Shown here piece after piece: positions 1-58,797 of a DNA stretch of 64,000 nt. The stretch comes from a virus: positions 1-64,000 of the IMG/VR virus record IMGVR_UViG_3300011113_000747; one strand, written 5' to 3'. The notes below the pieces were generated by a model. The model did no database searches and was not told the origin of the DNA. It was given only the letters and a program-made list of their open reading frames with translations. The position numbers and the translations under genes are program-made. Positions within the stretch are counted from its first letter, which is position 1. The number at the start of each line of letters is the position of its first letter.

Positions 1-2
1 AG

Positions 3-41
3 GCTCTAGTTGCAGCAAAGAAAGGTAAGAAGAAGGCCTAA
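3..41 (+). CDS. C-terminal end of a truncated upstream gene
   Basis: Only the last 12 codons and the TAA are in the window. They encode a Lys/Ala-rich tail (ALVAAKKGKKKA). A similar Lys/Ala-rich tail ends the minus-strand gene at 4469-4768. A terminator hairpin follows at 69-95, so this closes an upstream transcription unit. Function unknown. Confidence 0.6.
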   Translation, partial: ALVAAKKGKKKA

Positions 42-68
42 TAGGAAGCAATTGAAAGGATGTTAATA

Positions 69-105
69 GAGGGGTGAGTGAATAGCTCACCCCTCCTCTC
101 TTTAT
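69..105 (+). terminator. Rho-independent-type terminator
   Basis: A perfect 10-bp stem (69-78 with 86-95, GC-rich) with a 7-nt loop is followed by a pyrimidine/T-rich tract. It separates the upstream gene from the early promoter array. Confidence 0.8.
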
Positions 106-132
106 AATAAGGAAAGTCGATATAATATTGTT

Positions 133-2808: not shown

Positions 2809-2849
2809 GCACGAAGTGTCACTAAAAGGAAAGTTAATATAATATTATT

Positions 2850-3110
2850 ATGAAAGAAATAATTTTAATTAATGGTGAGAATAAAGTTTTAGGTGTGTGG
2901 GTGGGTGTGTGGGGAGAGAAAATATGGAATGAGATTAATGAGGAGTGTGAGGTGGGAATGGAGTTTGGGGAGTGGAGTGAGGGAGAGGAGAGAGGTGATG
3001 GGTGGAAGATTTATGAGAGTGATGGTATGGGTGTGTTGGTGGTTGATGAGGGGAGGGATTGGAAAAAATGTAAGAAAGAGTATTGGGGGATGGTGTTAAG
3101 AAAATATTAA
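2850..3110 (+). CDS. Cytosine-free small early gene
   Basis: 86 aa. The coding strand contains no C from 2823 to 3122, so Ala, Pro, Thr, His and Gln are entirely absent and the protein is rich in Gly, Glu, Val and Trp (starts MKEIILINGENK). The promoter at 2828 is the C-free variant. In a three-letter A/G/T sequence stop codons are frequent (3 of 27 codons), so an 86-codon open frame is unlikely by chance, which supports a real protein. No family recognised. Confidence 0.7.
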   Translation: MKEIILINGENKVLGVWVGVWGEKIWNEINEECEVGMEFGEWSEGEERGDGWKIYESDGMGVLVVDEGRDWKKCKKEYWGMVLRKY

Positions 3111-3150
3111 TTTAATTGAGAGCTTTTAGGAAAGTTAATATAATATTAAT

Positions 3151-3351
3151 ATGAAAATCATCGAAATTAATGTTGCTGAGAAGAGTGTTAAGATTGAGTA
3201 TGTGGGTAAAGAAAGGTTAGTGACTTTTAGTGATAATGGTGATATTGATGTTGAGCCTTTTGGTGACTTGAGTGATTGTGAAAGTGAAGTGTTGTTTGAT
3301 AGTATTTTGAATAGTGAAGAGATTAATTGTGCTCTTCCTTTTGAAGACTAA
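3151..3351 (+). CDS. Small acidic early protein, unknown function
   Basis: 66 aa, Glu/Asp/Val/Ser-rich. Promoter at 3129 (C-free variant). Cytosine use is low but not zero, intermediate between normal genes and the C-free neighbours. Terminator at 3369-3394 follows. Confidence 0.75.
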   Translation: MKIIEINVAEKSVKIEYVGKERLVTFSDNGDIDVEPFGDLSDCESEVLFDSILNSEEINCALPFED

Positions 3352-3368
3352 AAGAGAATTTGAGATAA

Positions 3369-3394
3369 GGCAGCAGGGTGAAAGCTCTGCTGCC
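3369..3394 (+). terminator. Hairpin terminator
   Basis: 8-bp perfect stem GGCAGCAG/CTGCTGCC (3369-3376 with 3387-3394) followed by a CTCCTCCC tract, between the gene ending at 3351 and the promoter at 3410. Confidence 0.65.
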
Positions 3395-3431
3395 TCCTCC
3401 CGTCGCTAAGGAAAATTAATATAATATTATT

Positions 3432-3713
3432 ATGCAAGAAATTAAAAATTATAATGGGCTTAGCAATGATGAAGAGGTGGAGTTGCTTAATGAGATGGTG
3501 GGTGAAATGTGTGATGAGTATGGTGATGGTTTGATTGGTTTGAGTGAGTTGGTGAGTGTGATTTGTGGTAAAGAGTTTTATAATAAGTATGATGATGAAG
3601 ATTTGGATTATGTGAAAGAGGTGATGAGGGAGTTTTGTAGGGTGAATGTGGAGTTTAATTTGGAGAATGAAGATGTGTATTTGGTGAGTTTTGTGGATGA
3701 AGATGAGGAGTGA
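3432..3713 (+). CDS. Nearly cytosine-free early gene
   Basis: 93 aa, very acidic (many Glu/Asp), with only four C residues, all in the first 55 nt; none from 3487 on. Ala, Pro, Thr and His are absent and only one Gln occurs. Promoter at 3410. Function unknown. Confidence 0.7.
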   Translation: MQEIKNYNGLSNDEEVELLNEMVGEMCDEYGDGLIGLSELVSVICGKEFYNKYDDEDLDYVKEVMREFCRVNVEFNLENEDVYLVSFVDEDEE

Positions 3714-3745
3714 AAAGGGAGAGGGAAAATTAATATAATATTAGT

Positions 3746-3988
3746 ATGAAAGAAATGAAAGTTAATATTGAAAATAAAGTTGTTGGAATTTTGGATGAAG
3801 ATAATGTTTTGGGGTTTGTGGAAGTGAATGAAGATGTGAAAGATTTGTGGAATGGTTGTTTGGTTGTTGAGAGTGGGAAGTATGGTTATATGGATGATAT
3901 GGTGGTGTTTGTTGGTGATAGTGAAGATGAAGTGAAGAAGGAAGTGAAAGAATTTTTGAAGAAAGAGATTGAAGAAAGAGATTGGTGA
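3746..3988 (+). CDS. Cytosine-free small early gene
   Basis: 80 aa, no C on the coding strand; Ala, Pro, Thr, His and Gln absent; rich in Val, Glu, Asp and Lys, with an acidic/basic helical C-terminus. Promoter at 3724. It lies in a 554-nt C-free run (3487-4040) that also covers its promoter and both flanks. Confidence 0.7.
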   Translation: MKEMKVNIENKVVGILDEDNVLGFVEVNEDVKDLWNGCLVVESGKYGYMDDMVVFVGDSEDEVKKEVKEFLKKEIEERDW

Positions 3989-4044
3989 GGGGTGTGGAGG
4001 GGAGAGGTGGAAGGATAAGAAAGGAAAATTAATATAATAACTTT

Positions 4045-4200
4045 ATGAAGACGCTATTTACAATTAAGATTGACAAAATGGATGCCTTTAATAAAGTGCG
4101 GCGCGGGCCGGCTGGTAAAGGTAAGTTTGGGGGTTATGCCTTTCGAGATAAGACGAAATATTGTCGCAAAGAGAAGTTCCGATCTCAGAGAGGGGTGTGA
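4045..4200 (+). CDS. Small basic early protein, unknown function
   Basis: 51 aa (MKTLFTIKIDKMDAF...), Lys/Arg-rich C-terminal half. Promoter at 4023 with the ATG at exactly +22. Followed by a strong terminator with T-run, so it ends the plus-strand half of the array. Family not recognised. Confidence 0.7.
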   Translation: MKTLFTIKIDKMDAFNKVRRGPAGKGKFGGYAFRDKTKYCRKEKFRSQRGV

Positions 4201-4224
4201 GCGATACAAAAACAATTTCTATAG

Positions 4225-4257
4225 AGCAGAGGGGTGTATAGCTCCTCTGCTTTTTTT
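4225..4257 (+). terminator. Rho-independent terminator
   Basis: Stem AGCAGAGG/CCTCTGCT (4225-4232 with 4244-4251) followed directly by TTTTTTT. Canonical intrinsic terminator ending the first plus-strand early block. Confidence 0.85.
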
Positions 4258-4468: not shown

Positions 4469-4768
4469 TCAGGCCTTGGCTTTCGCCTTAGCCTTCTTAG
4501 CCTTCTGAGCTGCCAGCAGCTGGCGAGCCTCTTTCATCTTGAGCTTATAAGCCTCATAACGAGCCACCTTATTAGCGGCCTTCTCAGCCTCAGCCTCAGC
4601 ATTCACTTCAGCAGCCCAAGCCGCAATCTCAGCTTTATGCTGCAGCCCAAACTCAATCAGCTTATTCATAAGCTCTTTCTCGCCAATATTCAGCTCATCT
4701 CGCAGAGTCTGAACCAATTCTTTATCAGCATTGAAGACCATCGTAGCAGTGAATTTAGCTTCTTTCAT
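4469..4768 (-). CDS. Lys/Ala/Glu-rich helical protein
   Basis: 99 aa from MKEAKFTATM; a mostly helical Ala/Glu/Lys protein with a repetitive C-terminal tail of AK repeats. The frame stays open upstream through a (GAAA)n repeat to near 4819, but the first ATG is at 4768. The minus-strand early promoter at 4822-4837 would give a ~45-nt leader with a purine-rich AGAAAG stretch before the ATG, so unlike its neighbours this gene would not be leaderless. Basic tail suggests nucleic-acid binding (inference). Confidence 0.7.
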   Translation of the reverse strand: MKEAKFTATMVFNADKELVQTLRDELNIGEKELMNKLIEFGLQHKAEIAAWAAEVNAEAEAEKAANKVARYEAYKLKMKEARQLLAAQKAKKAKAKAKA

Positions 4769-4821
4769 ATTCTTTCTTTCTTTCTTTCTTTTTATTTTAT
4801 TTACTTTCTTCTTACTCAAAT

Positions 4822-8032: not shown

Positions 8033-8359
8033 ATGACACGCAAAGACATTAATCTACTTGCTGAAGCTTATAAAGAAGCATCTATGGGGGACTGGGAAAC
8101 TGAATGGGATAATATGACACCACCTCCGAGCGTGTTTGAAAGAGCTCTTGCTGATCCTACCAATTTTGATCTACATATTACTAGTGAAGAAGGTCTTGAC
8201 TGGGATAACTTTAAGATGCATCCTGTATATACGGTATATGAAATTGGTAGTAATGGTAAGTATGGTGACTATGAAGTGGTATCTAACTATGCTGATATTG
8301 AAGATATTGTAGATGCATTTGAAAAAAAGAACCCACAAGGTATTAAAGATAAAAGATAA
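8033..8359 (+). CDS. Capsid-tagged late protein, MTRKDINLLAEAY family
   Basis: 108 aa. The frame is open from 7985 but the late promoter (TTAAATAATACTATG) sets the start at 8033. Begins with MTRKDINLLAEAY, shared almost exactly by four consecutive genes; it resembles T4 capsid-targeting peptides and contains an L-A-E cleavage motif. The remaining acidic body is unrelated to its neighbours. Function unknown. Confidence 0.8.
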   Translation: MTRKDINLLAEAYKEASMGDWETEWDNMTPPPSVFERALADPTNFDLHITSEEGLDWDNFKMHPVYTVYEIGSNGKYGDYEVVSNYADIEDIVDAFEKKNPQGIKDKR

Positions 8360-8367
8360 ATAATATC

Positions 8368-8583
8368 ATGACACGCAAAGACATTAATCTACTTGCTGAA
8401 GCCTACGGAAATTCTGATGAGGTTGGTAATTTAGCTAGGCAATTTCGCTATAATGATAAAGTTAGGCAAATACTAAAAGACTTAGCACATCACGGTAAAA
8501 TTTCAAACTTGGAAGCAGATAATGATGCATTTGAAGCAATGTTATATGCTTTTGCAGCAGGTTACCATATGAGAAATAAATAA
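8368..8583 (+). CDS. Capsid-tagged late protein, MTRKDINLLAEAY family
   Basis: 71 aa. Promoter GATAAATAATATCATG; tag followed by a helical body (VRQILKDLAHHGKIS...). Same tag DNA as its neighbours but a different body. Function unknown. Confidence 0.8.
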   Translation: MTRKDINLLAEAYGNSDEVGNLARQFRYNDKVRQILKDLAHHGKISNLEADNDAFEAMLYAFAAGYHMRNK

Positions 8584-8587
8584 TATC

Positions 8588-8869
8588 ATGACACGCAAAG
8601 ACATTAATCTACTTGCTGAAGCTTTCAGTTCGACTAAACCTAAAACTATTAATGAACAGAATGGTGATGCTGTGTATGGTCTTATTAATACCGCTGATGG
8701 TCCAACATTAGTTGGTTTGTATGTATCACAAGAACAAGCTCAGCAAGCTCTTGATGCCTTTTTAGCAACCCCAGAAGGTGAGAATGAAACTGATTATTTT
8801 TACATTACACCACTTGCGTTAGGTCAACCAGTTAACTTTGATTACATTTATGACACGCAAAGACATTAA
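8588..8869 (+). CDS. Capsid-tagged late protein, paralog of 7187 gene
   Basis: 93 aa. Tag MTRKDINLLAEAF, then KTINEQNG and a body matching that of the 7187 gene (QAQQALDAF versus AAEQALQQA, PVNFDYIYD versus PAVWDLLNN). Two (L/I)-x-E sites (LAE and INE) suggest removal of the whole leader. The end overlaps the start of the next gene by 20 nt. Confidence 0.8.
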   Translation: MTRKDINLLAEAFSSTKPKTINEQNGDAVYGLINTADGPTLVGLYVSQEQAQQALDAFLATPEGENETDYFYITPLALGQPVNFDYIYDTQRH

Positions 8870-9041
8870 TCTTATCACTGAAGCCTATGAGAAGAATAAG
8901 GTTGATGCAGAACAACTCAGAATCGGAATTGAAGTTGAACTTGAACATACCGATGATGAGAAAGTTGCTGAGAAGATCGCACGTGATCACTTAGCAGAAG
9001 ACCCTCACTATTACACCAAGTTAAAGAAAGCTGGACTATAA
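8850..9041 (+). CDS. Capsid-tagged DUF5661-like protein
   Basis: 63 aa. Tag MTRKDINLITEAY, then the pattern '(Q)LRIGIEVELEHTDD...VAEKIARDHLAEDPHYYTKL', which matches the family annotated DUF5661, common in phages and bacteria but of unknown function. Start at 8850 rather than 8838, by alignment of the tag. Confidence 0.8.
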   Translation: MTRKDINLITEAYEKNKVDAEQLRIGIEVELEHTDDEKVAEKIARDHLAEDPHYYTKLKKAGL

Positions 9042-48740: not shown

Positions 48741-49352
48741 ATGTATATGAGTCAAAAATACGATTTAATTGCAGCTGAAGAAGCTTATGGTAAATTTTTA
48801 GAGGCTTTAGGCTTCGATTGGAAAAATAATCCGCATATGGAAGATACCCCACATCGAGTTGCTAAAGCTTGGGTGCATGATCTTGCAAGAGGTTGTTTTG
48901 AAAACGAACCAAAGATTACAGCATTTGAAAACGATGGTCAGTATGATGGTATGGTTTGTCAAACAAACATTCCAGTAATCAGTATGTGTGCACATCATAA
49001 TCTTCCTTTTATGGGTTATGCTCACGTTGCATACATTCCATCTCCAGATGGTAAAGTGATTGGTCTTTCGAAATTGAATCGAATTGTCGATTATATTTCT
49101 CGTCGTCCTTCTGTGCAAGAAACTTTGAATATGGACATTCATAAGTTCATTGATAAAGTTTGCTCTAATAATAAAGGTGTTGCAGTTATGGTTGAAGCAA
49201 ATCATACTTGTTGCTCTTTGCGTGGTATTAAGCAGAATTCAACAATGAGAACAGCTCGTATGTCTGGTTCATTTCATGAGCTTGGAGATAATAGCCGAAA
49301 TGAATTCTATAAATTTATTGAATTTGCACAAAATAGTCGGTCGTTAGTTTAA
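48741..49352 (+). CDS. folE: GTP cyclohydrolase I FolE
   Basis: 203 aa. 'DTPHRVAKAWVHDL', zinc ligands CAHHNLPF and 'NHTCCSLRGIKQ', 'GLSKLNRIVDYISRRPSVQETL' define FolE, which converts GTP to dihydroneopterin triphosphate, the first step to preQ0. A second ATG at 48747 is possible. Confidence 0.95.
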   Translation: MYMSQKYDLIAAEEAYGKFLEALGFDWKNNPHMEDTPHRVAKAWVHDLARGCFENEPKITAFENDGQYDGMVCQTNIPVISMCAHHNLPFMGYAHVAYIPSPDGKVIGLSKLNRIVDYISRRPSVQETLNMDIHKFIDKVCSNNKGVAVMVEANHTCCSLRGIKQNSTMRTARMSGSFHELGDNSRNEFYKFIEFAQNSRSLV

Positions 49353-50787: not shown

Positions 50788-50862
50788 GCGGATATAATTC
50801 AGTGGTAGAATATCTCGTTGCCAACGAGAGTGTCGTCGGTTCAAATCCGACTATCCGCTCCA
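50788..50862 (+). tRNA. tRNA-Gly (GCC)
   Basis: Fully canonical cloverleaf: acceptor GCGGATA/TATCCGC, D-loop AGTGGTA, anticodon loop TTGCCAA, T-loop TTCAAAT, T-CCA. Confidence 0.97.
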
Positions 50863-50871
50863 TTTTCAAAA

Positions 50872-50946
50872 GCGGTGTAGATGTTAATGGCTGCACACCT
50901 GACTTCCAATCAGAAGGAGGGGGTTCGATTCCCCCACACCGCACCA
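50872..50946 (+). tRNA. tRNA-Gly (TCC)
   Basis: Acceptor GCGGTGT/ACACCGC, anticodon loop CTTCCAA, T-stem GGGGG/CCCCC with TTCGATT. Canonical elbow. Confidence 0.95.
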
Positions 50947-50953
50947 ATTTTAA

Positions 50954-51030
50954 CGGGATGTAGCTCAGCCTGGTAGAGCGCTTGCTTTGGGAGCAAGATG
51001 TCGTCGGTTCGAATCCGGCTATCCCGACCA
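50954..51030 (+). tRNA. tRNA-Pro (TGG)
   Basis: C1:G72 acceptor CGGGATG/TATCCCG typical of Pro, D-loop AGCCTGGTA, anticodon loop TTTGGGA, T-loop TTCGAAT, ACCA end. Canonical. Confidence 0.97.
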
Positions 51031-51035
51031 TTTAT

Positions 51036-51128
51036 GGAGAGTTAACTGGACAAGCGCGCCAGGGATGTTTGCTAAACATCACGCACTTCCCTCAGAGGTG
51101 TGCGGGGCAGGACCGCAGCTCTCCTCCA
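51036..51128 (+). tRNA. tRNA-Ser (GCT)
   Basis: Acceptor GGAGAGT/GCTCTCC, anticodon loop TTGCTAA, long variable arm. D-loop ACAAGCGCG (no GG), T-loop GGCAGGA. Confidence 0.85.
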
Positions 51129-51136
51129 TTTTTATT

Positions 51137-51213
51137 CGGGTGGTGTCTGGACAAGTAAACGAGCTCGGTTTGGATCCGAGTATATGTGGGAGCGTTACCC
51201 ACTCACCCGACCA
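51137..51213 (+). tRNA. tRNA-Pro (TGG), second copy, atypical elbow
   Basis: C1:G72 acceptor CGGGTGG/TCACCCG, A73. Anticodon stem CTCGG/CCGAG, loop TTTGGAT. D-arm weak, without GG; T-loop AGCGTTA. Confidence 0.75.
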
Positions 51214-51223
51214 ATTTCAAAAA

Positions 51224-51312
51224 TCCCCCTTAGCTCAGTGGTAGAGCGCTTGGCTGTTAACCAGGAGGCCCTTATAAGGTATAGCGACGATCGTAACGTC
51301 GAGGGGGAGCCA
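51224..51312 (+). tRNA. tRNA-Asn (GTT) with enlarged variable region
   Basis: Acceptor TCCCCCT/AGGGGGA, canonical D-arm (AGTGGTA) and anticodon loop CTGTTAA. A 19-nt variable region with CCTT/AAGG and a T-loop ATCGTAA are atypical for Asn. Confidence 0.8.
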
Positions 51313-51321
51313 ATTTCAAAA

Positions 51322-51407
51322 GCAGGTGTGGGTCAATTGGTTGACCAACAGACTTTTAATCTGTGCGAGTAATCGCTATGTGGGTTCGAGTCCCATCGCC
51401 TGCACCA
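51322..51407 (+). tRNA. tRNA-Lys (TTT) with variable-arm hairpin
   Basis: Acceptor GCAGGTG/CGCCTGC, anticodon loop CTTTTAA, T-loop TTCGAGT. Variable region carries a GCGA/TCGC hairpin, unusual for Lys. Confidence 0.88.
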
Positions 51408-51416
51408 ATTTCAAAT

Positions 51417-51493
51417 ATCCGGCCATGTTCCAAGGCTAGGCGACGCGGACTCCAAATTTGCGTGGGTCAGTTCAATTCTGACGCCGGATGCCA
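51417..51493 (+). tRNA. tRNA-Trp (CCA)
   Basis: Acceptor ATCCGGC/GCCGGAT, anticodon stem with G-T pairs and loop CTCCAAA, T-stem GTCAG/CTGAC with TTCAATT, G73. Confidence 0.85.
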
Positions 51494-51501
51494 TTTCAAA
51501 T

Positions 51502-51577
51502 GCCCCATTAGTATAACGGACAGAACACTCGGCTACGAACCGAGAGAAGGTAGGTTCAATTCCTCCATGGGGTACCA
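51502..51577 (+). tRNA. tRNA-Arg (ACG)
   Basis: Acceptor GCCCCAT/ATGGGGT, anticodon arm CTCGG-CTACGAA-CCGAG, T-loop TTCAATT with one T-stem mismatch. Confidence 0.9.
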
Positions 51578-51580
51578 TTT

Positions 51581-51655
51581 CGCGCAATGGTGTAAGGTAA
51601 AGCACGCTGGCCACACTGGCGCCAGAGGAAGGGTGAAAAGCCTGATGCGCAACCA
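51581..51655 (+). tRNA. tRNA-like, possibly Val (CAC)
   Basis: Ends in CCA between two tRNAs; acceptor CGCGCAA/ATGCGCA has a C-A first pair and one A-A mismatch. A CGCTG/TGGCG stem presents GCCACAC (anticodon CAC, C at 33). T-arm weak. Could be degenerate. Confidence 0.4.
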
Positions 51656-51663
51656 TTTCAAAT

Positions 51664-51742
51664 GCTCCAGAAGCTACAGTAGACGGGCAGCTGGCTCTTA
51701 ACCAGAAGATTCGTGTGGTTGCAACTACCACCTGGAGTACCA
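51664..51742 (+). tRNA. tRNA-Lys (CTT)
   Basis: Acceptor GCTCCAG/CTGGAGT, anticodon loop CTCTTAA, T-stem GTGGT/ACCAC with loop TGCAACT. Confidence 0.85.
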
Positions 51743-51752
51743 ATTTCAAAAA

Positions 51753-51829
51753 GCCCCGGTAGCATAACTGGTAACTGCAGCAGTCTCAAACACTGAAGAG
51801 TGTCGGTTCGAATCCGACTCGGGGTACCA
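51753..51829 (+). tRNA. tRNA-Leu (CAA), short variable arm
   Basis: Acceptor GCCCCGG/TCGGGGT, anticodon loop CTCAAAC, T-loop TTCGAAT. The variable loop is 5 nt, whereas bacterial tRNA-Leu normally has a long arm. Very similar to the Leu (TAG) gene at 52129. Confidence 0.85.
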
Positions 51830-51834
51830 ATTAA

Positions 51835-51921
51835 GGAAGCACCAGCTGAGATGGACGCTCTGCGGAGAAGTGTTACTTGTGCAAGAAAGCTAAACGAACG
51901 CTTTCCAGCTGACTTCCACCA
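51835..51921 (+). tRNA. tRNA-like RNA, unassigned
   Basis: CCA-ended segment with GGAAG/CTTCC outer stem, inner CAGCTG/CAGCTG pairing, an AGC/GCT D-arm-like hairpin with GG, and GAAAGC/GCTTTC hairpin. No clean anticodon arm. Possibly a degenerate tRNA or another RNA. Confidence 0.35.
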
Positions 51922-51928
51922 ATTTCAT

Positions 51929-52027
51929 GGGAGTGTGAAGCCAAAGGCTAGGCTAGTGGTTCGATTCCACTTTAATTGCTGGTGCACTCGACGGAGCAAG
52001 AGGGTTCGAATCCCTTCACTTCCACCA
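51929..52027 (+). tRNA. tRNA-Ser-like (CGA by position)
   Basis: Acceptor GGGAGTG/CACTTCC, D-stem GCC/GGC, anticodon-position arm AGTGG-TTCGATT-CCACT (CGA), a ~30-nt variable arm with TTGCT/AGCAA, T-loop TTCGAAT. Anticodon loop itself looks like a T-loop, so the assignment is uncertain. Confidence 0.55.
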
Positions 52028-52036
52028 ATTTCAAAT

Positions 52037-52120
52037 GGGCTTGTGGATAACCAGAAACAGCAGAATGGCTCGGCTTAAACCCGATGATCCTTGAGGGTGC
52101 AACTCCCTTCAAGCCTACCA
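52037..52120 (+). tRNA. tRNA-Leu (TAA), short variable arm
   Basis: Acceptor GGGCTTG/CAAGCCT, A73. Anticodon loop CTTAAAC. D-stem CCA/TGG with a loop lacking GG; T-loop TGCAACT; variable region short. Confidence 0.78.
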
Positions 52121-52128
52121 ATTTCAAT

Positions 52129-52205
52129 GCCCTGGTAGCATAACTGGCAACTGCGTCTGACTTAGGATCAGAAGAATGGGGGTTCGAATCCCTCTCAGGG
52201 TACCA
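52129..52205 (+). tRNA. tRNA-Leu (TAG), short variable arm
   Basis: Acceptor GCCCTGG/TCAGGGT, anticodon loop CTTAGGA, T-loop TTCGAAT; 5-nt variable loop, unlike normal class II Leu. Confidence 0.88.
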
Positions 52206-52213
52206 ATTTCAAA

Positions 52214-52288
52214 GGCCTATAAGCATAGATAGCGATGTATCCGTTTTGTAGTCGGAATAGGAGTGCGCAAGTCACTCATGGGCCTCCA
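52214..52288 (+). tRNA. tRNA-Thr (TGT)
   Basis: Acceptor GGCCTAT/ATGGGCC. Anticodon loop TTTGTAG. D-arm GCAT-AGATAGCG-ATGT without GG; T-stem GAGTG/CACTC with loop CGCAAGT. Same elbow pattern as Thr (GGT) at 56907. Confidence 0.8.
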
Positions 52289-52294
52289 TTTTAT

Positions 52295-52369
52295 TACCCT
52301 CTAGTGTAATGGTTAACACACCTGACTTTGACTCAGGTAGTCCTCGTTCGAATCGAGGGAGGGTAGCCA
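52295..52369 (+). tRNA. tRNA-Gln (TTG)
   Basis: Acceptor TACCCTC/GAGGGTA, anticodon arm CCTGA-CTTTGAC-TCAGG, T-loop TTCGAAT. Canonical. Confidence 0.95.
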
Positions 52370-52379
52370 ATTTTCAAAT

Positions 52380-52442
52380 GGGGTGTCCTGTGCCGCCTAG
52401 CAGGGTAATGGAAAATCTTGGGCTAACCTCCACATTCCACCA
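52380..52442 (+). tRNA. 63-nt CCA-ended tRNA-like RNA
   Basis: Acceptor-type stem GGGGTGT/ACATTCC plus A-CCA and an internal CCTGT/GCAGG hairpin, but no complete anticodon or T-arm. Too short for a normal tRNA; possibly a minimised or degenerate one. Confidence 0.35.
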
Positions 52443-52451
52443 ATTTCAAAT

Positions 52452-52529
52452 AACCCTATCGTATAGTCTGGTTGAGTATGTCTGTCTCTGAAACAGAAGG
52501 CCCTGGTTCAAATCCAGGTAGGGTTGCCA
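52452..52529 (+). tRNA. tRNA-Gln (CTG)
   Basis: Acceptor AACCCTA/TAGGGTT, anticodon arm TCTGT-CTCTGAA-ACAGA, T-loop TTCAAAT. Canonical. Confidence 0.94.
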
Positions 52530-52551
52530 ATTTCAAACAACAAACACAAAC

Positions 52552-52833
52552 ATGTGGCCAAGCATTAATAATTTTAAAATCTTATCACCAAAAGAAAAAT
52601 GTATAGCTGCATTTCATTATTGGGTTGAAACACAAACAGATGGTAGTGTTTCTTGGAGACATGCAAATACATGTACAACTTCTCTAACACAAAAGCAGCA
52701 GATGCATTATAGAAAATATTATGAAGTGCTTCATGCAATTAGGTTTGTTATTCATACTGAACGCTATGATTTGCTAATTTCTGAGCATCAAGCATTGAAT
52801 GCTCTCAATGATGGCAACAATGTTTTAGTTTAG
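52552..52833 (+). CDS. Small protein inside the tRNA array
   Basis: 93 aa, His/Trp/Thr-containing helical protein (MWPSINNFKILSPKE...). Sits between the Gln and Met tRNAs with only short gaps, so it is co-transcribed with tRNAs. Function unknown. Confidence 0.7.
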   Translation: MWPSINNFKILSPKEKCIAAFHYWVETQTDGSVSWRHANTCTTSLTQKQQMHYRKYYEVLHAIRFVIHTERYDLLISEHQALNALNDGNNVLV

Positions 52834-52839
52834 TAAAAA

Positions 52840-52914
52840 TGCTCTCGGGAGGTAAGGATCTCGGACCGTCTCATAAGCGGTGTTAAGTGGGTGCAATCCC
52901 CACGGGAGCGACCA
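52840..52914 (+). tRNA. tRNA-Met/Ile2 (CAT)
   Basis: Acceptor TGCTCTC/GGGAGCG, anticodon arm ACCGT-CTCATAA-GCGGT, T-stem GTGGG/CCCAC with loop TGCAATC. Elongator Met or lysidine-modified Ile; lacks initiator GGG/CCC stem. Confidence 0.85.
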
Positions 52915-52920
52915 ATTTAA

Positions 52921-52936
52921 GGAAATACGATATAAT
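52921..52936 (+). promoter_or_regulatory. Early promoter before Glu tRNA block
   Basis: GGAAATACGATATAAT, start predicted near 52943, immediately before tRNA-Glu. Confidence 0.8.
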
Positions 52937-52957
52937 AATAGAGTAATAAATTTAAAA

Positions 52958-53035
52958 GTCCCTGTAGTTAACGGAAGGCTATAACATCGCCCTTTCACGG
53001 CGAAATACCCGGTTCGACCCCGGGTGGGGATGCCA
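52958..53035 (+). tRNA. tRNA-Glu (TTC)
   Basis: Acceptor GTCCCTG/TGGGGAT, anticodon arm TCGCC-CTTTCAC-GGCGA, T-stem CCCGG/CCGGG. Canonical. Confidence 0.94.
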
Positions 53036-53044
53036 ATTTCAAAT

Positions 53045-53118
53045 GACCCTGTAGATTAATAGTAAATCGCCACGCTTTCAACGTGAAGACGACGGAGCAT
53101 AACCGTCCTGGGTTGCCA
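53045..53118 (+). tRNA. tRNA-Glu-like (TTC), atypical elbow
   Basis: Acceptor GACCCTG/CTGGGTT with one mismatch. D-arm GATT-AATAGTA-AATC lacks GG; anticodon stem CACG/CGTG, loop CTTTCAA; T-stem GACGG/CCGTC with loop AGCATAA. Confidence 0.7.
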
Positions 53119-53127
53119 ATTTCAAAT

Positions 53128-53205
53128 AGAGCCGAAGTCAAACAGCATTGACGCTCGCCTGTCGAGCGAGATATAAAGTGGGGGCAGCACCCATCGGCTC
53201 TGCCA
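53128..53205 (+). tRNA. tRNA-Asp (GTC)
   Basis: Acceptor AGAGCCG/CGGCTCT, G73. D-loop AACAGCAT (no GG), anticodon arm CTCGC-CTGTCGA-GCGAG, T-loop GGCAGCA. Confidence 0.85.
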
Positions 53206-53213
53206 ATTTCAAT

Positions 53214-53289
53214 CCTTCTGTAGCTGAGTGGTTTTTAGCAGCGTCTTGATAAGGCGCAGACGTAGGTTCAATTCCTACCAGAAGGACCA
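53214..53289 (+). tRNA. tRNA-Ile (GAT)
   Basis: Acceptor CCTTCTG/CAGAAGG, anticodon arm GCGTC-TTGATAA-GGCGC, T-stem GTAGG/CCTAC with TTCAATT. Canonical. Confidence 0.93.
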
Positions 53290-53297
53290 ATTTCAAA

Positions 53298-53373
53298 AGC
53301 CCTATAGCCCAACAGCAGAGGCAATACGTTAAGGGCGTATTCAGTGCAGGTGCAAATCCTGCTAGGGGTACCA
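53298..53373 (+). tRNA. tRNA-Leu (AAG), short variable arm
   Basis: Acceptor AGCCCTA/TAGGGGT with one G-G mismatch. D-stem GCC/GGC, loop without GG. Anticodon arm ATACG-TTAAGGG-CGTAT. T-stem GCAGG/CCTGC with TGCAAAT. Unmodified A34 is unusual. Confidence 0.7.
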
Positions 53374-53378
53374 ATTTT

Positions 53379-53561
53379 ATGAAAATAATTGTCAACACAG
53401 AACAAGAAAAGATTGCTTTATTAAAAGCTTCAAAATACATTCATGATCTAAAATGTTTAGATACAAGCGATGATGCTGTTAATACAATAGCTCATTTGTA
53501 TTGTGCACCATTTTTAATTGAAGTTGATCCTAATTTAAAAATTTCAGTTGAACAACAATAG
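53379..53561 (+). CDS. Small protein inside the tRNA array
   Basis: 60 aa (MKIIVNTEQEKIALLKAS...), likely soluble alpha/beta. The frame begins 6 nt after the Leu tRNA. The next early promoter begins right at its stop. Function unknown. Confidence 0.65.
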   Translation: MKIIVNTEQEKIALLKASKYIHDLKCLDTSDDAVNTIAHLYCAPFLIEVDPNLKISVEQQ

Positions 53562-53576
53562 GAAAGAGTATATAAT
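53561..53576 (+). promoter_or_regulatory. Early promoter before Asn tRNA block
   Basis: GGAAAGAGTATATAAT, start predicted near 53583, overlapping the end of the 53379 CDS. Confidence 0.75.
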
Positions 53577-53593
53577 ATTGTTGTAGATAAAAA

Positions 53594-53669
53594 TCCCAAG
53601 TAGCTCAGCGGTAGTAGCGAGTGGCTGTTAACCACTAGGTCGCTGGTTCGATCCCAGCCTTGGGAGCCA
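53594..53669 (+). tRNA. tRNA-Asn (GTT), canonical copy
   Basis: Acceptor TCCCAAG/CTTGGGA, G73, anticodon arm AGTGG-CTGTTAA-CCACT, T-stem GCTGG/CCAGC with TTCGATC. Confidence 0.95.
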
Positions 53670-53679
53670 TTTTCAAAAT

Positions 53680-53753
53680 TGCAGGTAGGTGGTCTAGTGA
53701 CCATTCTGGGCTCATAACCCGGAGAGCGTGGTGCGATTCCCGGCCTGTTACCA
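53680..53753 (+). tRNA. Initiator tRNA-fMet (CAT)
   Basis: Anticodon stem CTGGG/CCCGG has three consecutive G-C pairs next to the CTCATAA loop, and the first acceptor pair is unpaired (T-T): both initiator hallmarks. T-arm is weak with TGCGATT. Confidence 0.8.
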
Positions 53754-53761
53754 ATTTCAAT

Positions 53762-53837
53762 GCCCGGTTAGCTCAGCGGTAGTAGCACCGCCTTTACACG
53801 GCGACTGTCGCAGGTTCAATCCCTGCACCGGGTACCA
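53762..53837 (+). tRNA. tRNA-Val (TAC)
   Basis: Acceptor GCCCGGT/ACCGGGT, anticodon loop TTTACAC, T-stem GCAGG/CCTGC with TTCAATC. Canonical. Confidence 0.94.
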
Positions 53838-53843
53838 GTTTAT

Positions 53844-53919
53844 GGGGCCATAGCACAATTGGTAGTGCACCTGCTTTGCAAGCAGAAGGTTACCGGTTCG
53901 ACTCCGGTTGGCTCCACCA
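53844..53919 (+). tRNA. tRNA-Ala (TGC)
   Basis: Acceptor GGGGCCA/TGGCTCC with the G3-T70 pair that identifies tRNA-Ala; anticodon loop TTTGCAA; T-loop TTCGACT; A-CCA. Canonical. Confidence 0.97.
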
Positions 53920-53929
53920 ATTTCTAAAT

Positions 53930-54025
53930 GATCGGCGTCTGAAAAGGTAAGAGAAACCTCTCCCACTGCAAACGTTAGCAGATGAAGTTTTGAGCTTTCA
54001 TAACGACGAGTATACCTGGTCACCA
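53930..54025 (+). ncRNA. CCA-ended multibranch RNA
   Basis: Outer stem GATCGG/CCTGGTC, then CGTC/GACG enclosing AGGT/ACCT, CTGC/GCAG and ATGAA/TTCAT hairpins. Ends A-CCA and the usual ATTTC spacer, but is not a standard cloverleaf. Confidence 0.45.
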
Positions 54026-54030
54026 ATTTC

Positions 54031-54150
54031 AGAACATTCAATCAACCGCAACACAGAGGTCGATCTTGCAAGCCGAGTACCTCTGACGGCTCTGATAACA
54101 GGTGCGCTTGCACGAGCCTTGCGAATGGTTCTGCATGCACCAGCTGAATT
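54031..54150 (+). ncRNA. Structured RNA ending in CCA
   Basis: Outer AGAAC-ATTC/GAAT-GGTTCT stem, a CAGAGGT/ACCTCTG hairpin, and CGGCTC/GAGCC enclosing GTGC-GCTT-GCAC. Ends GCATGCACCA. No CDS in this stretch. Not a tRNA; family unknown. Confidence 0.45.
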
Positions 54151-54201
54151 AGCTACTCAGTGTGGTGCTAAATTTTTTAATTAACTATAATAAATATTAA
54201 C

Positions 54202-54660
54202 ATGAAAAAAGATTTAAAACTCATTGCAGAAGCTTATAACAAGGTTATTATTGAACAAATAACTGATGATTGGTTTCAACAAGGAGCATTTCAAGCTTAT
54301 AAAAAGCCAGCAAAAGAACCATATCAAGTTGCAAAGCAAGATGGTGTGTTACAGACCTTAGAAGGACCACAACAATACAAAGCTGGTTTTTATATTATTA
54401 CAGGACCGAAAGGTGAAAAATATTCGATGCCTCCAGAAAAATTCAATGAATTAAAAGATGATAACGGGGATGGTACAGCTTCACCTAAAAAAATTATTAA
54501 GCAAGTAAAATTAGCTGATTCAGATGGTGTTGTAAAAACTTCATGGGGAGCTGATTTACAATATAAGTCTGGGGAAGATTATATTGTTAAACATGGTCCG
54601 GGTGATTATGGTGTGGTAAAGAAAGATATTTTTCAGCAAACATACGTATCCGAACAATAA
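54202..54660 (+). CDS. Capsid-tagged late protein in the tRNA array
   Basis: 152 aa. Late promoter AATAAATATTAACATG. N-terminus MKKDLKLIAEAYNKVIIEQ has I-A-E and I-I-E sites of the tag family. The body has two related halves (residues ~45-90 and ~100-145: 'DGVLQTLEGPQQYKAGFYIITGPKGEKY' and 'DGVVKTSWGADLQYKSGEDYIVKHGPGDY'), an internal duplication of a small beta domain. Function unknown. Confidence 0.8.
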   Translation: MKKDLKLIAEAYNKVIIEQITDDWFQQGAFQAYKKPAKEPYQVAKQDGVLQTLEGPQQYKAGFYIITGPKGEKYSMPPEKFNELKDDNGDGTASPKKIIKQVKLADSDGVVKTSWGADLQYKSGEDYIVKHGPGDYGVVKKDIFQQTYVSEQ

Positions 54661-54670
54661 ATTTTTCAAT

Positions 54671-54745
54671 GCGCAATGAGCCAGCTGGCGTAGGCAGCGG
54701 TCTGCAAAATCGCTTAGTAGGGTTCGATTCCCTAATTGCGCTCCA
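54671..54745 (+). tRNA. tRNA-Cys (GCA)
   Basis: Acceptor GCGCAAT/ATTGCGC, T73. D-stem GCC/GGC with GG; anticodon stem GCGGT/ATCGC, loop CTGCAAA; T-stem TAGGG/CCCTA with TTCGATT. Confidence 0.9.
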
Positions 54746-54770
54746 ATTCTAGTACGCGTATCCGGCGCTA

Positions 54771-54836
54771 GGCTCGTCGCTGGTTAATTCTAGACATCTG
54801 AGATTCCAAATTTCAGATGAAGTTAACGGGCCGCCA
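54771..54836 (+). tRNA. 66-nt tRNA-like RNA with CCA anticodon-like loop
   Basis: GGCTCGT/ACGGGCC stem plus G-CCA end. A 9-bp hairpin carries TTCCAAA (anticodon CCA). No T-arm. May be a degenerate tRNA-Trp. Confidence 0.35.
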
Positions 54837-54858
54837 ATTTTTTTAGTTGAATTAGATA

Positions 54859-54874
54859 GGAAATATCTTATAAT
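54859..54874 (+). promoter_or_regulatory. Early promoter before Arg tRNA block
   Basis: GGAAATATCTTATAAT, start predicted near 54881, followed by tRNA-Arg. Confidence 0.75.
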
Positions 54875-54897
54875 AAAGGTGTAAACAAACAACAAAA

Positions 54898-54980
54898 GCC
54901 CCGGTAGCGGATCCGCCTTCTAAGCGGAGCATTGTACCGTAATTGGACGCATACAGGTTCGAGTCCTGTTCGGGGTACCA
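54898..54980 (+). tRNA. tRNA-Arg (TCT), D-arm missing or displaced
   Basis: Acceptor GCCCCGG/TCGGGGT, T-stem ACAGG/CCTGT with TTCGAGT. The anticodon arm TCCGC-CTTCTAA-GCGGA starts only 7 nt after the acceptor; a D-like CGT-AATTGG-ACG hairpin lies instead between anticodon arm and T-arm. Confidence 0.75.
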
Positions 54981-54990
54981 TTTTTCAAAA

Positions 54991-55067
54991 TCCCTGCGTA
55001 TCATAATTAGTTAATGTCCTCGCCTGTGAAGCGAGCTAAGACGGGGCAGAACCGTCCCAGGGAACCA
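54991..55067 (+). tRNA. tRNA-His (GTG), atypical
   Basis: Acceptor TCCCTG/CAGGGA, anticodon arm CTCGC-CTGTGAA-GCGAG, T-stem GACGG/CCGTC with GGCAGAA; D-loop without GG. Has A73 and no evident G-1, the usual HisRS determinant. Confidence 0.78.
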
Positions 55068-55074
55068 TTTCATC

Positions 55075-55362
55075 ATGACAACCACACGCAAAGATAAAAT
55101 TTTAGTTTTCCAACACAAAATAACTAATTTATATTTAGCAGTATGGCGTGAGCCGGGATCAACTTCTTATTTTTGGACATATGATGTTAATGATGCTATG
55201 CAGTCAAATGTATGGGATGAAAATCATGCAATTTTTCAGAACATTGAAAAGGCAGACCCTGCAAAATATTTTGACCCCATGAGAAGCAATGAAATTAAAG
55301 ATTGCAAACTTGTAATGTTTGAAAAAGAGTCTACAATCAATTACAAACAAATTTCATCATGA
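55075..55362 (+). CDS. Small protein inside the tRNA array
   Basis: 95 aa, starts MTTTRKDKILVFQHK; alpha/beta, Trp/Phe-rich. Begins 7 nt after the His tRNA; overlaps the next gene by 4 nt (ATGA). Confidence 0.7.
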   Translation: MTTTRKDKILVFQHKITNLYLAVWREPGSTSYFWTYDVNDAMQSNVWDENHAIFQNIEKADPAKYFDPMRSNEIKDCKLVMFEKESTINYKQISS

Positions 55363-55706
55363 CAACATCAACAATCATCAATGAAGATTATGCAATGGAG
55401 CTTACGATGTTGCATCGTTACAGAGACCTTTCAGATGGTCTTTCGGTAATAGAATTTGATTGCAACTTTGATTGGTATCATGGTGATCATTGTCCAAAGT
55501 TTGATTTGAGTCTGAGATTATTCAATTGGACTATTTTTGAGTTTAACATCTACAACAGACATCATGTTGTAGATGAAATAGGCGATGTTTTATTGCCTTG
55601 GGCAAAACAAGATTTTGAAGAATCAGACAAAGCTTTTATAGAGCTTGTAAAAAATTCCGGAATAGTTGCAAACGAGGGTTCGAAACCTCCAGTAGCATCT
55701 AACTGA
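55359..55706 (+). CDS. Small protein inside the tRNA array
   Basis: 115 aa, acidic, Trp/His-rich ('FDCNFDWYHGDHCPKFDLSLRLFNWTIFEFNIYNRHHV'). Coupled to the 55075 gene. Its 3' end contains GAGGGTTCGAAACCTCC, resembling a tRNA T-arm, perhaps from an old tRNA overlap. Confidence 0.7.
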   Translation: MTTSTIINEDYAMELTMLHRYRDLSDGLSVIEFDCNFDWYHGDHCPKFDLSLRLFNWTIFEFNIYNRHHVVDEIGDVLLPWAKQDFEESDKAFIELVKNSGIVANEGSKPPVASN

Positions 55707-55710
55707 GATT

Positions 55711-55786
55711 CAAAGCATCGAAGTTTATAGGTTTGAACGACGGGTTGTTGGCCCGGTAGGTGTGTTCGAGTGCACACGTGCTTTGA
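55711..55786 (+). tRNA. tRNA-like, possibly Asn (GTT)
   Basis: CAAAGCA/TGCTTTG acceptor extendable to 11 bp with flanks, D-arm GTT...GAAC with GG, anticodon arm CGGG-TTGTTGG-CCCG, T-arm GTGTG/CACAC with TTCGAGTG. No encoded CCA, unlike its neighbours. Confidence 0.45.
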
Positions 55787-55797
55787 GTCTCGACAAT

Positions 55798-55872
55798 TCA
55801 TCTGGCTGTTGCAATGAGGTAAAGACCCAACGCAATGCCAAATAGTCCAAAAAGTAAGAGTAAAATATTCAT
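55798..55872 (-). CDS. 24-aa transmembrane micro-peptide
   Basis: MNILLLLFGLFGIALGLY... then IATAR: almost entirely one hydrophobic helix. Second of two tiny minus-strand membrane ORFs (with 55891-55977), downstream of a late promoter. Confidence 0.55.
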   Translation of the reverse strand: MNILLLLFGLFGIALGLYLIATAR

Positions 55873-55890
55873 AAGGGCTGCATTTCAAAA

Positions 55891-55977
55891 CTATGGCAAA
55901 GCTTTTGCTATAGCGATGAAAATTGCAGCAATGCAAAAAAATCCAAGAAACATGTGGATTATCTCAAGGAAGTTCAT
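55891..55977 (-). CDS. 28-aa transmembrane micro-peptide
   Basis: MNFLEIIHMFLGFFCIAAIF then IAIAKALP: one transmembrane helix. Late promoter AATAAATAACTATATG sits right before the ATG, which supports expression. Function unknown; holin-like or membrane-protein regulator are possibilities. Confidence 0.65.
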   Translation of the reverse strand: MNFLEIIHMFLGFFCIAAIFIAIAKALP

Positions 55978-55996
55978 ATAGTTATTTATTCAAAAT

Positions 55997-56084
55997 GCTG
56001 GTGTGGCTGAGCGGCCTAAAGCACTAGTTTTGTAAACTAGCGGGAGTGATCCCATCGTCAGTTCGAATCTGACCACCAGCTCCA
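55997..56084 (+). tRNA. tRNA with Thr anticodon (TGT) and class II arm
   Basis: Acceptor GCTGGTG/CACCAGC, T73. Anticodon arm CTAGT-TTTGTAA-ACTAG. Variable arm CGGGA-GTGA-TCCCATC forms a Ser/Leu-type hairpin. T-stem GTCAG/CTGAC, TTCGAAT. The body looks Ser-like, the anticodon Thr-like. Confidence 0.85.
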
Positions 56085-56090
56085 TCTTCC

Positions 56091-56270
56091 ATGAACAATC
56101 GCAGATCATTCTTCAAAAGACTCATTGGCTTAATCGCTGCACCAAAGGTTGCGAAAGCAACACACTCAAGCAACATAGTCAAAATGTGGACACCTGAAAC
56201 AGGTGTTACATATGGTGAGTATATTCATCCAGGCATTTGTATTAAACAAATTGACAAAACGGGGAGTTAG
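56091..56270 (+). CDS. Small protein with twin-arginine-like N-terminus
   Basis: 59 aa, MNNRRSFFKRLIGLIAAPKV: R-R-x-F-F-K followed by a hydrophobic stretch, resembling a short Tat signal. C-terminal 'VKMWTPETGVTYGEYIHPGICIKQID'. Its stop TAG (56268-56270) lies inside the 5' part of the next tRNA. Confidence 0.6.
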   Translation: MNNRRSFFKRLIGLIAAPKVAKATHSSNIVKMWTPETGVTYGEYIHPGICIKQIDKTGS

Positions 56271-56334
56271 TATAGAAGCAGTACATTGGCTCGACACGCC
56301 AAAGAAGAAGGAGCGTTACCTTCACTCCCTACCA
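56261..56334 (+). tRNA. tRNA-Val (GAC), C33
   Basis: Acceptor GGGGAGT/ACTCCCT, D-arm GTA-TAGAAGCAG-TAC (no GG), anticodon arm TTGGC-TCGACAC-GCCAA with C at position 33, T-stem GAAGG/CCTTC with AGCGTTA. Overlaps the upstream CDS by 10 nt; its CCA is part of the next gene's late promoter. Confidence 0.75.
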
Positions 56335-56345
56335 TAAATATATTC

Positions 56346-56828
56346 ATGAAGTTTGATGATGTTGTAAACGAAGCACTTTCACGTCTTTCGCCTGTAAAAC
56401 TATATAGAGGAGCTGAACCAGATGAGGATCCTTCGAGTGAAGTAGAAAGACCTTGGGCCCAAGGTCGTGAATTAGATTTTCGTGCTGCATTTATGAAAGG
56501 AGATGTTGATGAAGTTATCAGCATGCTGCGTAAGCATGCTGGTGATTCTGGTGTAAGAGCAAAAGGTATAAAGTCATATTCTTTGAATAGAGATGTAGCA
56601 AAAGAGTTTATTTTCGACAAAGGTATAATTAAAGAATTAGATATACCCGCTAAAAACATAATTTCATCAAGACAAAGACTACAAACAATTTTATCTTTAC
56701 CTGATCAACAAAAACAGCAACTGCTCGATCAGGGTGTAGGATTCAACGTTAATAGATTGCTTTCCAAATATAAATTTGCTGCATCTGATCCAGATACAGA
56801 GCAAGAAATAATGATTTACAAAAAGTAA
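56346..56828 (+). CDS. R-S-E mono-ADP-ribosyltransferase
   Basis: 160 aa from MKFDDVVNEALSRL. ART fold: Arg21 (KLYRG), Ser77-Tyr-Ser79 (STS-type), Glu152-Gln-Glu154 (ExE), the R-S-E triad of arginine-type ARTs such as T4 Alt/ModA. Late promoter CATAAATATATTCATG; start at 56346 not 56286. The N-terminus V-N-E could be a capsid tag. Expected to modify host proteins with NAD+; target unknown. Confidence 0.8.
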   Translation: MKFDDVVNEALSRLSPVKLYRGAEPDEDPSSEVERPWAQGRELDFRAAFMKGDVDEVISMLRKHAGDSGVRAKGIKSYSLNRDVAKEFIFDKGIIKELDIPAKNIISSRQRLQTILSLPDQQKQQLLDQGVGFNVNRLLSKYKFAASDPDTEQEIMIYKK

Positions 56829-56906
56829 GCCAACTATCGCTCCACCCGACAGATAGCTTTGCATGACGGTGCAAATGACCCTGAAAATCGCAAGGAGCAA
56901 AATCAT
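56829..56906 (+). ncRNA. Short structured segment between CDS and tRNA
   Basis: CTATC/GATAG and TTTGCA/TGCAAA hairpins. Possibly a tRNA remnant or processing element. Confidence 0.3.
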
Positions 56907-56981
56907 GGTTTCTAAGCATAGACAGCGATGCACACGATTGGTATTCGTGATAGAGGAGCGCAAATCTCCTAGGAGCCTCCA
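56907..56981 (+). tRNA. tRNA-Thr (GGT)
   Basis: Acceptor GGTTTCT/AGGAGCC, D-arm GCAT-AGACAGCG-ATGC, anticodon arm CACGA-TTGGTAT-TCGTG, T-stem AGGAG/CTCCT with loop CGCAAAT. Shares its unusual elbow with the other short-arm Thr tRNA. Confidence 0.82.
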
Positions 56982-57001
56982 TTTTTCAGTGGAACCTTAA
57001 A

Positions 57002-57017
57002 GGAACTACGTTATAAT
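57002..57017 (+). promoter_or_regulatory. Early promoter of the 57055 gene
   Basis: GGAACTACGTTATAAT. The start would be near 57024, so the ATG at 57055 gets a ~30-nt leader; GTG at 57022 is too close. Confidence 0.75.
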
Positions 57018-57054
57018 AAAAGTGAAGTTAAAACAAAAACTAAACTTAAAACAT

Positions 57055-58071: not shown

Positions 58072-58078
58072 AAACTTC

Positions 58079-58122
58079 GGTGGGTAACTAGTACATAAAA
58101 AATATTAGTTACCCACCAAAAA
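58079..58122 (+). terminator. Hairpin terminator
   Basis: 12-bp stem GGTGGGTAACTA/TAGTTACCCACC (58079-58090 with 58106-58117), followed by an A-rich tract. Ends the DUF932-like gene. Confidence 0.75.
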
Positions 58123-58138
58123 ATAGTAGATTTATAAA

Positions 58139-58154
58139 GGAAAGTAGCTAAAAT
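58139..58154 (+). promoter_or_regulatory. Early promoter variant
   Basis: GGAAAGTAGCTAAAAT, the TAAAAT variant also used at 6485. Predicted start near 58161, leading into the 58161-58531 region. Confidence 0.6.
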
Positions 58155-58160
58155 AAATAC

Positions 58161-58747: not shown

Positions 58748-58797
58748 AGTCAAAGTGGTGCTGGATAACCACATTAAACACCAGTAAATATATACAT

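What the first reader, a model, noticed from the sequence alone, without database searches (positions are those of the whole stretch)
2823..4040. Cytosine-free early genes: 300-nt and 554-nt stretches with no C on the coding strand
Positions 2823-3122 and 3487-4040 have zero C on the + strand (zero G on the template). They cover two complete genes (86 and 80 aa) that entirely lack Ala, Pro, Thr, His and Gln, most of a third gene, and their promoters, which are C-free variants of the array motif. Neighbours on both sides use C normally. The ORFs stay open although an A/G/T alphabet is rich in stops, so coding is under selection. Explanations to test: escape from a C-dependent RNase or from CTP depletion during infection; template strands without G so that host RNAP never meets 7-deazaguanine; or directional C-to-T deamination. 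I know of no described precedent.
Basis: partly seen in the sequence, partly recalled or inferred. Interest (0 to 1): 0.95.

Follow-up and report, generated by a model that had tools for sequence, protein, structure and literature searches.

The report
Phage genes written without cytosine
A family of uncultured T4-like phages carries a few small protein genes whose coding strand contains no cytosine at all. It is real coding sequence, it recurs in at least four related phages, and it is not explained by C-to-T decay, so the virus seems to keep C out of these particular messages for a reason not yet known.

Summary
Positions 2823-3122 and 3487-4040 contain no C. The next longest C-free run in the 184.5-kb phage genome is 64 nt. 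Two complete genes (86 and 80 aa) have zero C and a third (93 aa) has four. Same-composition shuffles leave the frames open in 3, 0 and 1 of 20,000 trials, so coding is real. The same thing recurs in three related IMG/VR phages (G001/G002, G024, G048), in arrays of tiny genes with TATAAT-N6-ATG (leaderless-type) promoters. Across eleven such genes C is 0.75% inside ORFs but 13% just upstream. Eleven other phages examined, including T4, 9g and CP220, have no gene of 50 aa or more with 5% C or less. Two homologous gene pairs show the same protein encoded with C in one phage and almost without it in the other. C is replaced by T, G and A alike (12/10/5), so deamination is rejected. A 7-deazaguanine pathway is present, but comparison argues against it as the cause. 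Best explanation: selection for cytidine-free transcripts because each C makes a message costly (a C-analogue terminator such as ddhCTP, a C-specific RNase, or CTP shortage). The effector is inferred, not shown. No precedent was found.

The parts
2823..3122 (+). C-free tract 1 (300 nt): promoter, complete gene and 12 nt after the stop
2828..2849 (+). promoter GGAAAGTTAATATAATATTATT; TATAAT-N6-ATG spacing implies a leaderless transcript starting at the A of ATG
   Evidence: sequence; promoter set; leaderless start is inference
2850..3110 (+). C-free gene, 86 aa, G 41%; no family match; AlphaFold poor (pLDDT 52)
3151..3351 (+). C-poor gene between the tracts, 66 aa, 12 C in 201 nt
3368..3395 (+). 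hairpin GGCAGCAGGGTGAAAGCTCTGCTGCC separating the two C-free units; it keeps its C
   Evidence: -24.3 kcal/mol, z = -3.8
3432..3713 (+). third gene, 93 aa; 4 C in the first 55 nt, then none
3487..4040 (+). C-free tract 2 (554 nt): rest of the third gene, promoter, complete fourth gene, C-free spacer and the next promoter up to -5
3495..3713 (+). in-frame ATG 8 nt inside tract 2: a complete C-free 72-aa ORF (alternative start of the third gene)
3746..3988 (+). C-free gene, 80 aa; single-sequence AlphaFold pLDDT 82, strand-strand-helix-strand-strand-helix; no fold match
4045..4200 (+). next gene of the array, normal C (14%), with the same TTAA-type promoter
4222..4255 (+). intrinsic-terminator-like hairpin plus T run after gene 4045-4200
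   Evidence: -21.5 kcal/mol

Best explanation
These are genuine small phage proteins expressed from individual leaderless-type promoters whose messages have been purged of cytidine by selection acting on the transcribed sequence, not by mutation pressure. The most likely reason is that at some stage of infection every C in a message is costly, so a few genes that must be made then are kept C-free while their neighbours are not. The cost could be chain termination by a C analogue such as viperin's ddhCTP, cutting by a C-specific RNase, or lack of CTP. Shown: C-lessness, coding, recurrence in related phages, restriction mainly to the ORF in relatives, and a replacement pattern that is not deamination. 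Inferred: leaderless starts, early timing, that the RNA rather than the template is what is selected, and which effector acts.
For: Zero C over 300 and 554 nt, next run 64 nt. Open frames far beyond chance. Recurrence in G001/G002, G024 and G048, found by pattern or relatives searches. C-poor genes are mostly not homologous between G000, G001 and G024, so composition, not one protein, is what recurs. In eleven C-poor genes of four phages C is 20/2667 (0.75%) in ORFs, 41/308 (13%) at -40..-13 and 19/220 (8.6%) in the 20 nt after the stop (one wrong row replaced). In G048 a C-free run ends exactly at the stop codon, followed by CCC. Same protein with and almost without C: G048:5659 vs G024:223525 (69% id), and the reverse for G048:3670 vs G024:220770 (39% id), with T/G/A opposite the lost C 12/10/5. 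NNC codons are avoided as well as Ala/Pro/Thr/His/Gln, so the pressure is on nucleotides, not only residues. The near-absolute loss of C suggests a cost per single C.
Against: No effector has been identified: the host is unknown, and no viperin, C-specific RNase or CTP-depleting system is linked to it. In G000 the spacer after the last C-free gene and the first promoter are also C-free, which an ORF-only rule does not need. The start of gene 3432 and gene 3151 keep some C. G is positively favoured over A and T (GTG 25 of 34 Val codons, p = 2e-8), which simple C avoidance does not predict. There are no transcription data. Selection on the template (no G) would leave the same sequence.
Confidence: 0.42

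Rival explanations
1. Template strands without G: the phage carries 7-deazaguanine DNA, and host RNA polymerase reads modified template G poorly, so genes needed first avoid G in the template.
For: FolE, QueC and QueF in G000, and FolE and QueC in G024 and G048. The constraint follows the transcribed part.
Against: No TGT/DpdA found (divergent DpdA could be missed, and preQ genes may serve tRNA). 9g, CAjan and CP220 have no C-free coding runs, and the lowest-C gene of 9g and of the CP220 part examined has 14.5% and 6.5% C. Neighbouring genes with the same promoter have normal template G.
Confidence: 0.12
2. Evasion of Rho-dependent termination: Rho loads on C-rich, G-poor RNA through YC contacts, and a C-free, G-rich message cannot be loaded, which matters for foreign AT-rich genes.
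For: The direction fits: C goes to zero and G rises; rut sites are C-rich/G-poor with YC contacts (PMC9160355). T4 delayed-early RNA is sensitive to rho alleles (PMC2988021).
Against: Ordinary array genes already have more G than C, so loss of the last C should gain little; isolated C would be tolerated. Post-stop spacers, where Rho would load, keep C in G048. The neighbours are not protected.
Confidence: 0.12
3. R-loop formation: a C-free, G-clustered non-template strand makes a stable RNA:DNA hybrid used as a replication or recombination start, as at T4 R-loop origins.
For: The only two R-loop-forming-sequence motifs of G000 lie in C-free gene 2850, and all five of G001 lie in its C-poor repeat array.
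Against: C-free genes 3432/3746, G001:74.6 kb and G024:220.8 kb have no such motif, while G024 has six elsewhere. ORF-exact boundaries in G048 are not expected. R-loops tolerate a few C.
Confidence: 0.08
4. Structure-free leaderless mRNA: without C no G-C pairs form, giving an open message for 70S initiation and escape from RNase III-type enzymes.
For: Predicted folding is -0.048 kcal/mol per nt against -0.20 in the surrounding array; adding one C lowers the energy by 2 kcal/mol on average.
Against: Compared with shuffles of equal composition the C-free messages show no significant bias (z +1.35 and +0.84). Structure matters mainly at the 5' end, yet the whole ORF is C-free. The other leaderless-type genes do not do this.
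Confidence: 0.1
5. Directional C-to-T deamination of the displaced strand during transcription, followed by selection for open frames.
For: Strand-specific and concentrated in transcribed regions; conversion is complete.
Against: Third-position T unchanged (0.40 to 0.41) while G doubles (0.195 to 0.402); bases opposite lost C in homologous pairs are T 12, G 10, A 5; no PF00383 deaminase in G000.
Confidence: 0.05

Closest known systems
T4 Alc protein and hydroxymethylcytosine DNA (Straboviridae)
   Same: T4-like phage; cytosine identity decides whether a gene can be transcribed, since Alc terminates RNA polymerase on unmodified-C DNA (PMC2988021)
   Different: T4 modifies C everywhere and has no C-free genes (lowest ORF 9.1% C). 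No thymidylate synthase/dCMP hydroxymethylase-type gene is found in G000, G024 or G001. Here C is removed from a few coding strands while the template keeps C.
Phages with 7-deazaguanine DNA (9g, CAjan, CP220)
   Same: preQ0/preQ1 genes FolE, QueC, QueF
   Different: no DpdA/TGT detected; those phages have no C-free coding runs
Prokaryotic viperins (ddhCTP/ddhGTP/ddhUTP chain terminators)
   Same: a known defence one of whose products ends RNA at C (PMC12926258); a C-free message would be immune to that product
   Different: no viperin or phage response to it is linked to this phage; pure analogy
Ig switch-type / GC-skewed R-loop sequences
   Same: G-clustered, C-poor non-template strand (G000 gene 2850, G001 repeats)
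   Different: protein-coding, often without G clusters, C strictly absent

Membership tests
T4-like myovirus (gp23/gp20 clade) | T4-type major capsid, portal, DNA polymerase | tested here: met
   PF07068 2e-89, PF07230 2e-103, phrog_262 1e-197; GenBank gp23 identity below 60%, best listed about 35%
7-deazaguanine DNA-modified phage | preQ pathway genes FolE, QueC, QueF | tested here: met
7-deazaguanine DNA-modified phage | DpdA/TGT-type DNA transglycosylase | tested here: not met
   PF01702 no match up to E 10 in G000, G024, G001; a divergent DpdA could be missed
7-deazaguanine DNA-modified phage | modified G in virion DNA | not testable with these tools
   needs mass spectrometry or nanopore
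T4 HMC/Alc system | dCMP hydroxymethylase (thymidylate synthase fold) | tested here: not met
   PF00303 absent in G000, G024, G001; found in T4 as control
Diversity-generating retroelement or other RT-based mutator | reverse transcriptase | tested here: not met
   PF00078 absent
Deaminase hypermutation | C replaced by T | tested here: not met
R-loop-forming sequence | G clusters followed by a zone of at least 40% G | tested here: inconclusive
   met at gene 2850 and the G001 repeats, not at the other C-free genes
Counter-defence to ddhCTP (viperin) | C-free genes needed in viperin hosts | not testable with these tools
   host unknown, no experiment

The most novel reading that the evidence does not exclude
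A coding-level form of viral counter-defence: key small proteins are written in a three-letter (A, G, U) message so that they can still be made when C-containing transcripts are terminated or destroyed, for example by viperin's ddhCTP or a C-specific RNase.
Probability: 0.2. Interest if true: 0.95.

Novelty: categorically new. Interest (0 to 1): 0.82.

Why it matters
Whole protein genes without one of the four bases, kept open and recurring in related phages, would be a kind of sequence constraint I found no description of. If the cause is a defence that acts on C in RNA, the genes point to an unknown or under-appreciated antiviral pressure, and the small proteins themselves are prime candidates for early counter-defence. 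It also gives natural C-less messages that can be tested directly.

Tried and rejected
Artefact or low complexity: rejected (normal flanks, open frames, one product folds at pLDDT 82, independent contigs; short tandem repeats only). Deamination: rejected by replacement pattern. Reverse-transcriptase mutator, C5-methyltransferase, dCMP hydroxymethylase: not found. C-free hits in G025, G030 and G001:4.4-5.4 kb: Pro-Thr-type repeats or AT-rich DNA, not parallels. CP220, P-SSM2 and phage G runs of at least 100 nt: an AT-only stretch, a single stretch in a gene of otherwise ordinary C, and C-poor genes (5.6-8.7% C) of phage G that are not C-free. Two genome-contig hits: very AT-rich contigs. GenBank homologues of the locus: none; no IMG/VR homologue of proteins 2850 and 3432; Pfam/PHROG/Rfam: nothing convincing. 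Fold search of protein 3746: nothing significant. Apparent homology of protein 2850 with the G001 repeat proteins arose only by iteration on low-complexity sequence and was not used. G001 and G002 are nearly identical, so their few SNPs are uninformative. SD-like motifs are as expected from composition. Literature: no description of cytosine-free genes in phages.

Full report
Observation. The window is the first 64 kb of a 184.5-kb virus record. Its ends share about 127 nt (window 1-127 matches the last 127 nt of the record), so the genome is probably complete. It is a T4-like myovirus (gp23, gp20, T4-type DNA polymerase) with no close GenBank relative (best listed gp23 about 35% identity). 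Positions 2823-3122 and 3487-4040 have no C; nothing comparable exists elsewhere in the genome (next run 64 nt, longest G-free run 84 nt).

Anatomy. The locus lies in an array of tiny genes, most with their own promoter GGAA...TATAAT-N6-ATG. This spacing puts the expected transcription start on the A of the ATG, so the messages are probably leaderless (inference). Gene 2850-3110 and gene 3746-3988 have no C, gene 3432-3713 has four in its first 55 nt, and gene 3151-3351 has 6%. Tract 2 starts 8 nt before an in-frame ATG of the third gene, so the tract by itself holds a complete C-free 72-aa ORF. A strong hairpin (3368-3395) separates the two units and a terminator-like hairpin follows gene 4045; these keep their C. 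All five block promoters have TTAATATAAT, against 4 of 52 others.

Coding. Shuffles of the same composition give open frames in 3, 0 and 1 of 20,000, and the other two forward frames contain 5-16 stops each. The 80-aa product is predicted with confidence from its single sequence (pLDDT 82); the 86-aa one is not. Neither has a convincing family match, and the 80-aa model has no fold match.

Recurrence. A pattern search for the promoter followed by C-free sequence found IMG/VR records G001/G002 with three C-poor genes (0, 1.9, 2.0% C) behind the same promoter type, plus a second C-poor array of degenerate repeats. A C-free-run scan of 48 records found G024 (one gene with 2 C in 321 nt). A pattern for G024's promoter found G048, with a block of four genes at 0.5, 0, 1.5 and 0% C; G048 shares gp23 (68%), FolE and QueC with G000. 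In eleven other phages or records (G003, G006, G011, G020, G025, G030, G033, T4, 9g, and parts of CP220 and P-SSM2) no ORF of 50 aa or more has 5% C or less. The array genes tested are not shared between G000, G001 and G024, so what recurs is the composition.

What is constrained. In eleven C-poor genes of four phages C is 0.75% of the ORFs, 13% at -40..-13 and 8.6% in the 20 nt after the stop (the third G001 row used wrong coordinates and was replaced). In G048 one C-free run ends exactly at the stop codon, followed by CCC, and promoters keep their C. So the constraint follows the message, not a stretch of DNA; G000 is the exception in that its promoters and one spacer are also C-free.

Not deamination. 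Against 53 control genes, third-position C falls from 0.207 to 0.004, G rises from 0.195 to 0.402 and T is unchanged; GTG is 25 of 34 Val codons (p = 2e-8). In two homologous pairs between G024 and G048 (69% and 39% identity), the C-free copy is in G048 in one pair and in G024 in the other, and the bases opposite C are T 12, G 10, A 5. Both 'C-containing' copies are themselves C-poor (about 5-6%), and the counts are small. G000 has no PF00383 deaminase.

Mechanism. Near-absolute loss of C over whole ORFs, against the cost of giving up five amino acids, suggests each single C is costly. That fits events that act per C on the message: a chain-terminating C analogue (ddhCTP of prokaryotic viperins, described in PMC12926258), a C-specific RNase, or CTP shortage. 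It fits less well with Rho evasion (PMC9160355), R-loops (motifs present at some but not all C-free genes) or unstructured mRNA (no bias beyond composition). Template modification has a basis in the preQ genes, but no DpdA was detected and phages with known 7-deazaguanine DNA have no C-free coding runs. The preQ genes of DpdA-less phages may serve other uses (PMC6884629, lists QueC in phages without DpdA). The effector remains inferred.

Limits. There are no transcription data, the host is unknown, the four phages belong to one clade so are not fully independent, and pattern searches with a fixed promoter will miss cases. T4 Alc (PMC2988021) is the nearest known case where cytosine decides transcription in a T4-like phage.

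Noticed in passing
G001 66.3-68.7 kb (L132:6300-8730): About ten tiny ORFs made of a degenerate repeat (GATGAGGTATGGGATAAGGTA, protein VWDEVWGEV...), several with their own TATAAT-N6-ATG promoter and very C-poor; a relative with ordinary C lies at 70311-70643.
   Followed up: partly
window 8033-9041: Four consecutive genes share the N-terminal peptide MTRKDINL(L/I)(A/T)EAY followed by unrelated sequence; similar MNRKDQKDI starts lie at about L014:14972 and 15336. Looks like a shared targeting or processing leader.
   Followed up: no
window 48741-49349, L009:12791-13516 and a QueF ORF among those scanned: FolE, QueC and QueF: a preQ0/preQ1 pathway without a detectable TGT/DpdA.
   Followed up: partly
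one ORF of L011-L014 (alignment A3): Strong match (3e-42) to Tad3, an inhibitor of type I Thoeris defence.
   Followed up: no
window 1-127 and L015:416-542: The record's ends are identical over about 127 nt, so the 184.5-kb genome is probably complete.
   Followed up: partly
window 50788-58893: 21 tRNA genes on one strand.
   Followed up: no
window 4469-4819 (-) and L015:127-453: Paralogous genes with Lys/Ala-rich tails flank part of the array on both sides of the record junction.
   Followed up: no
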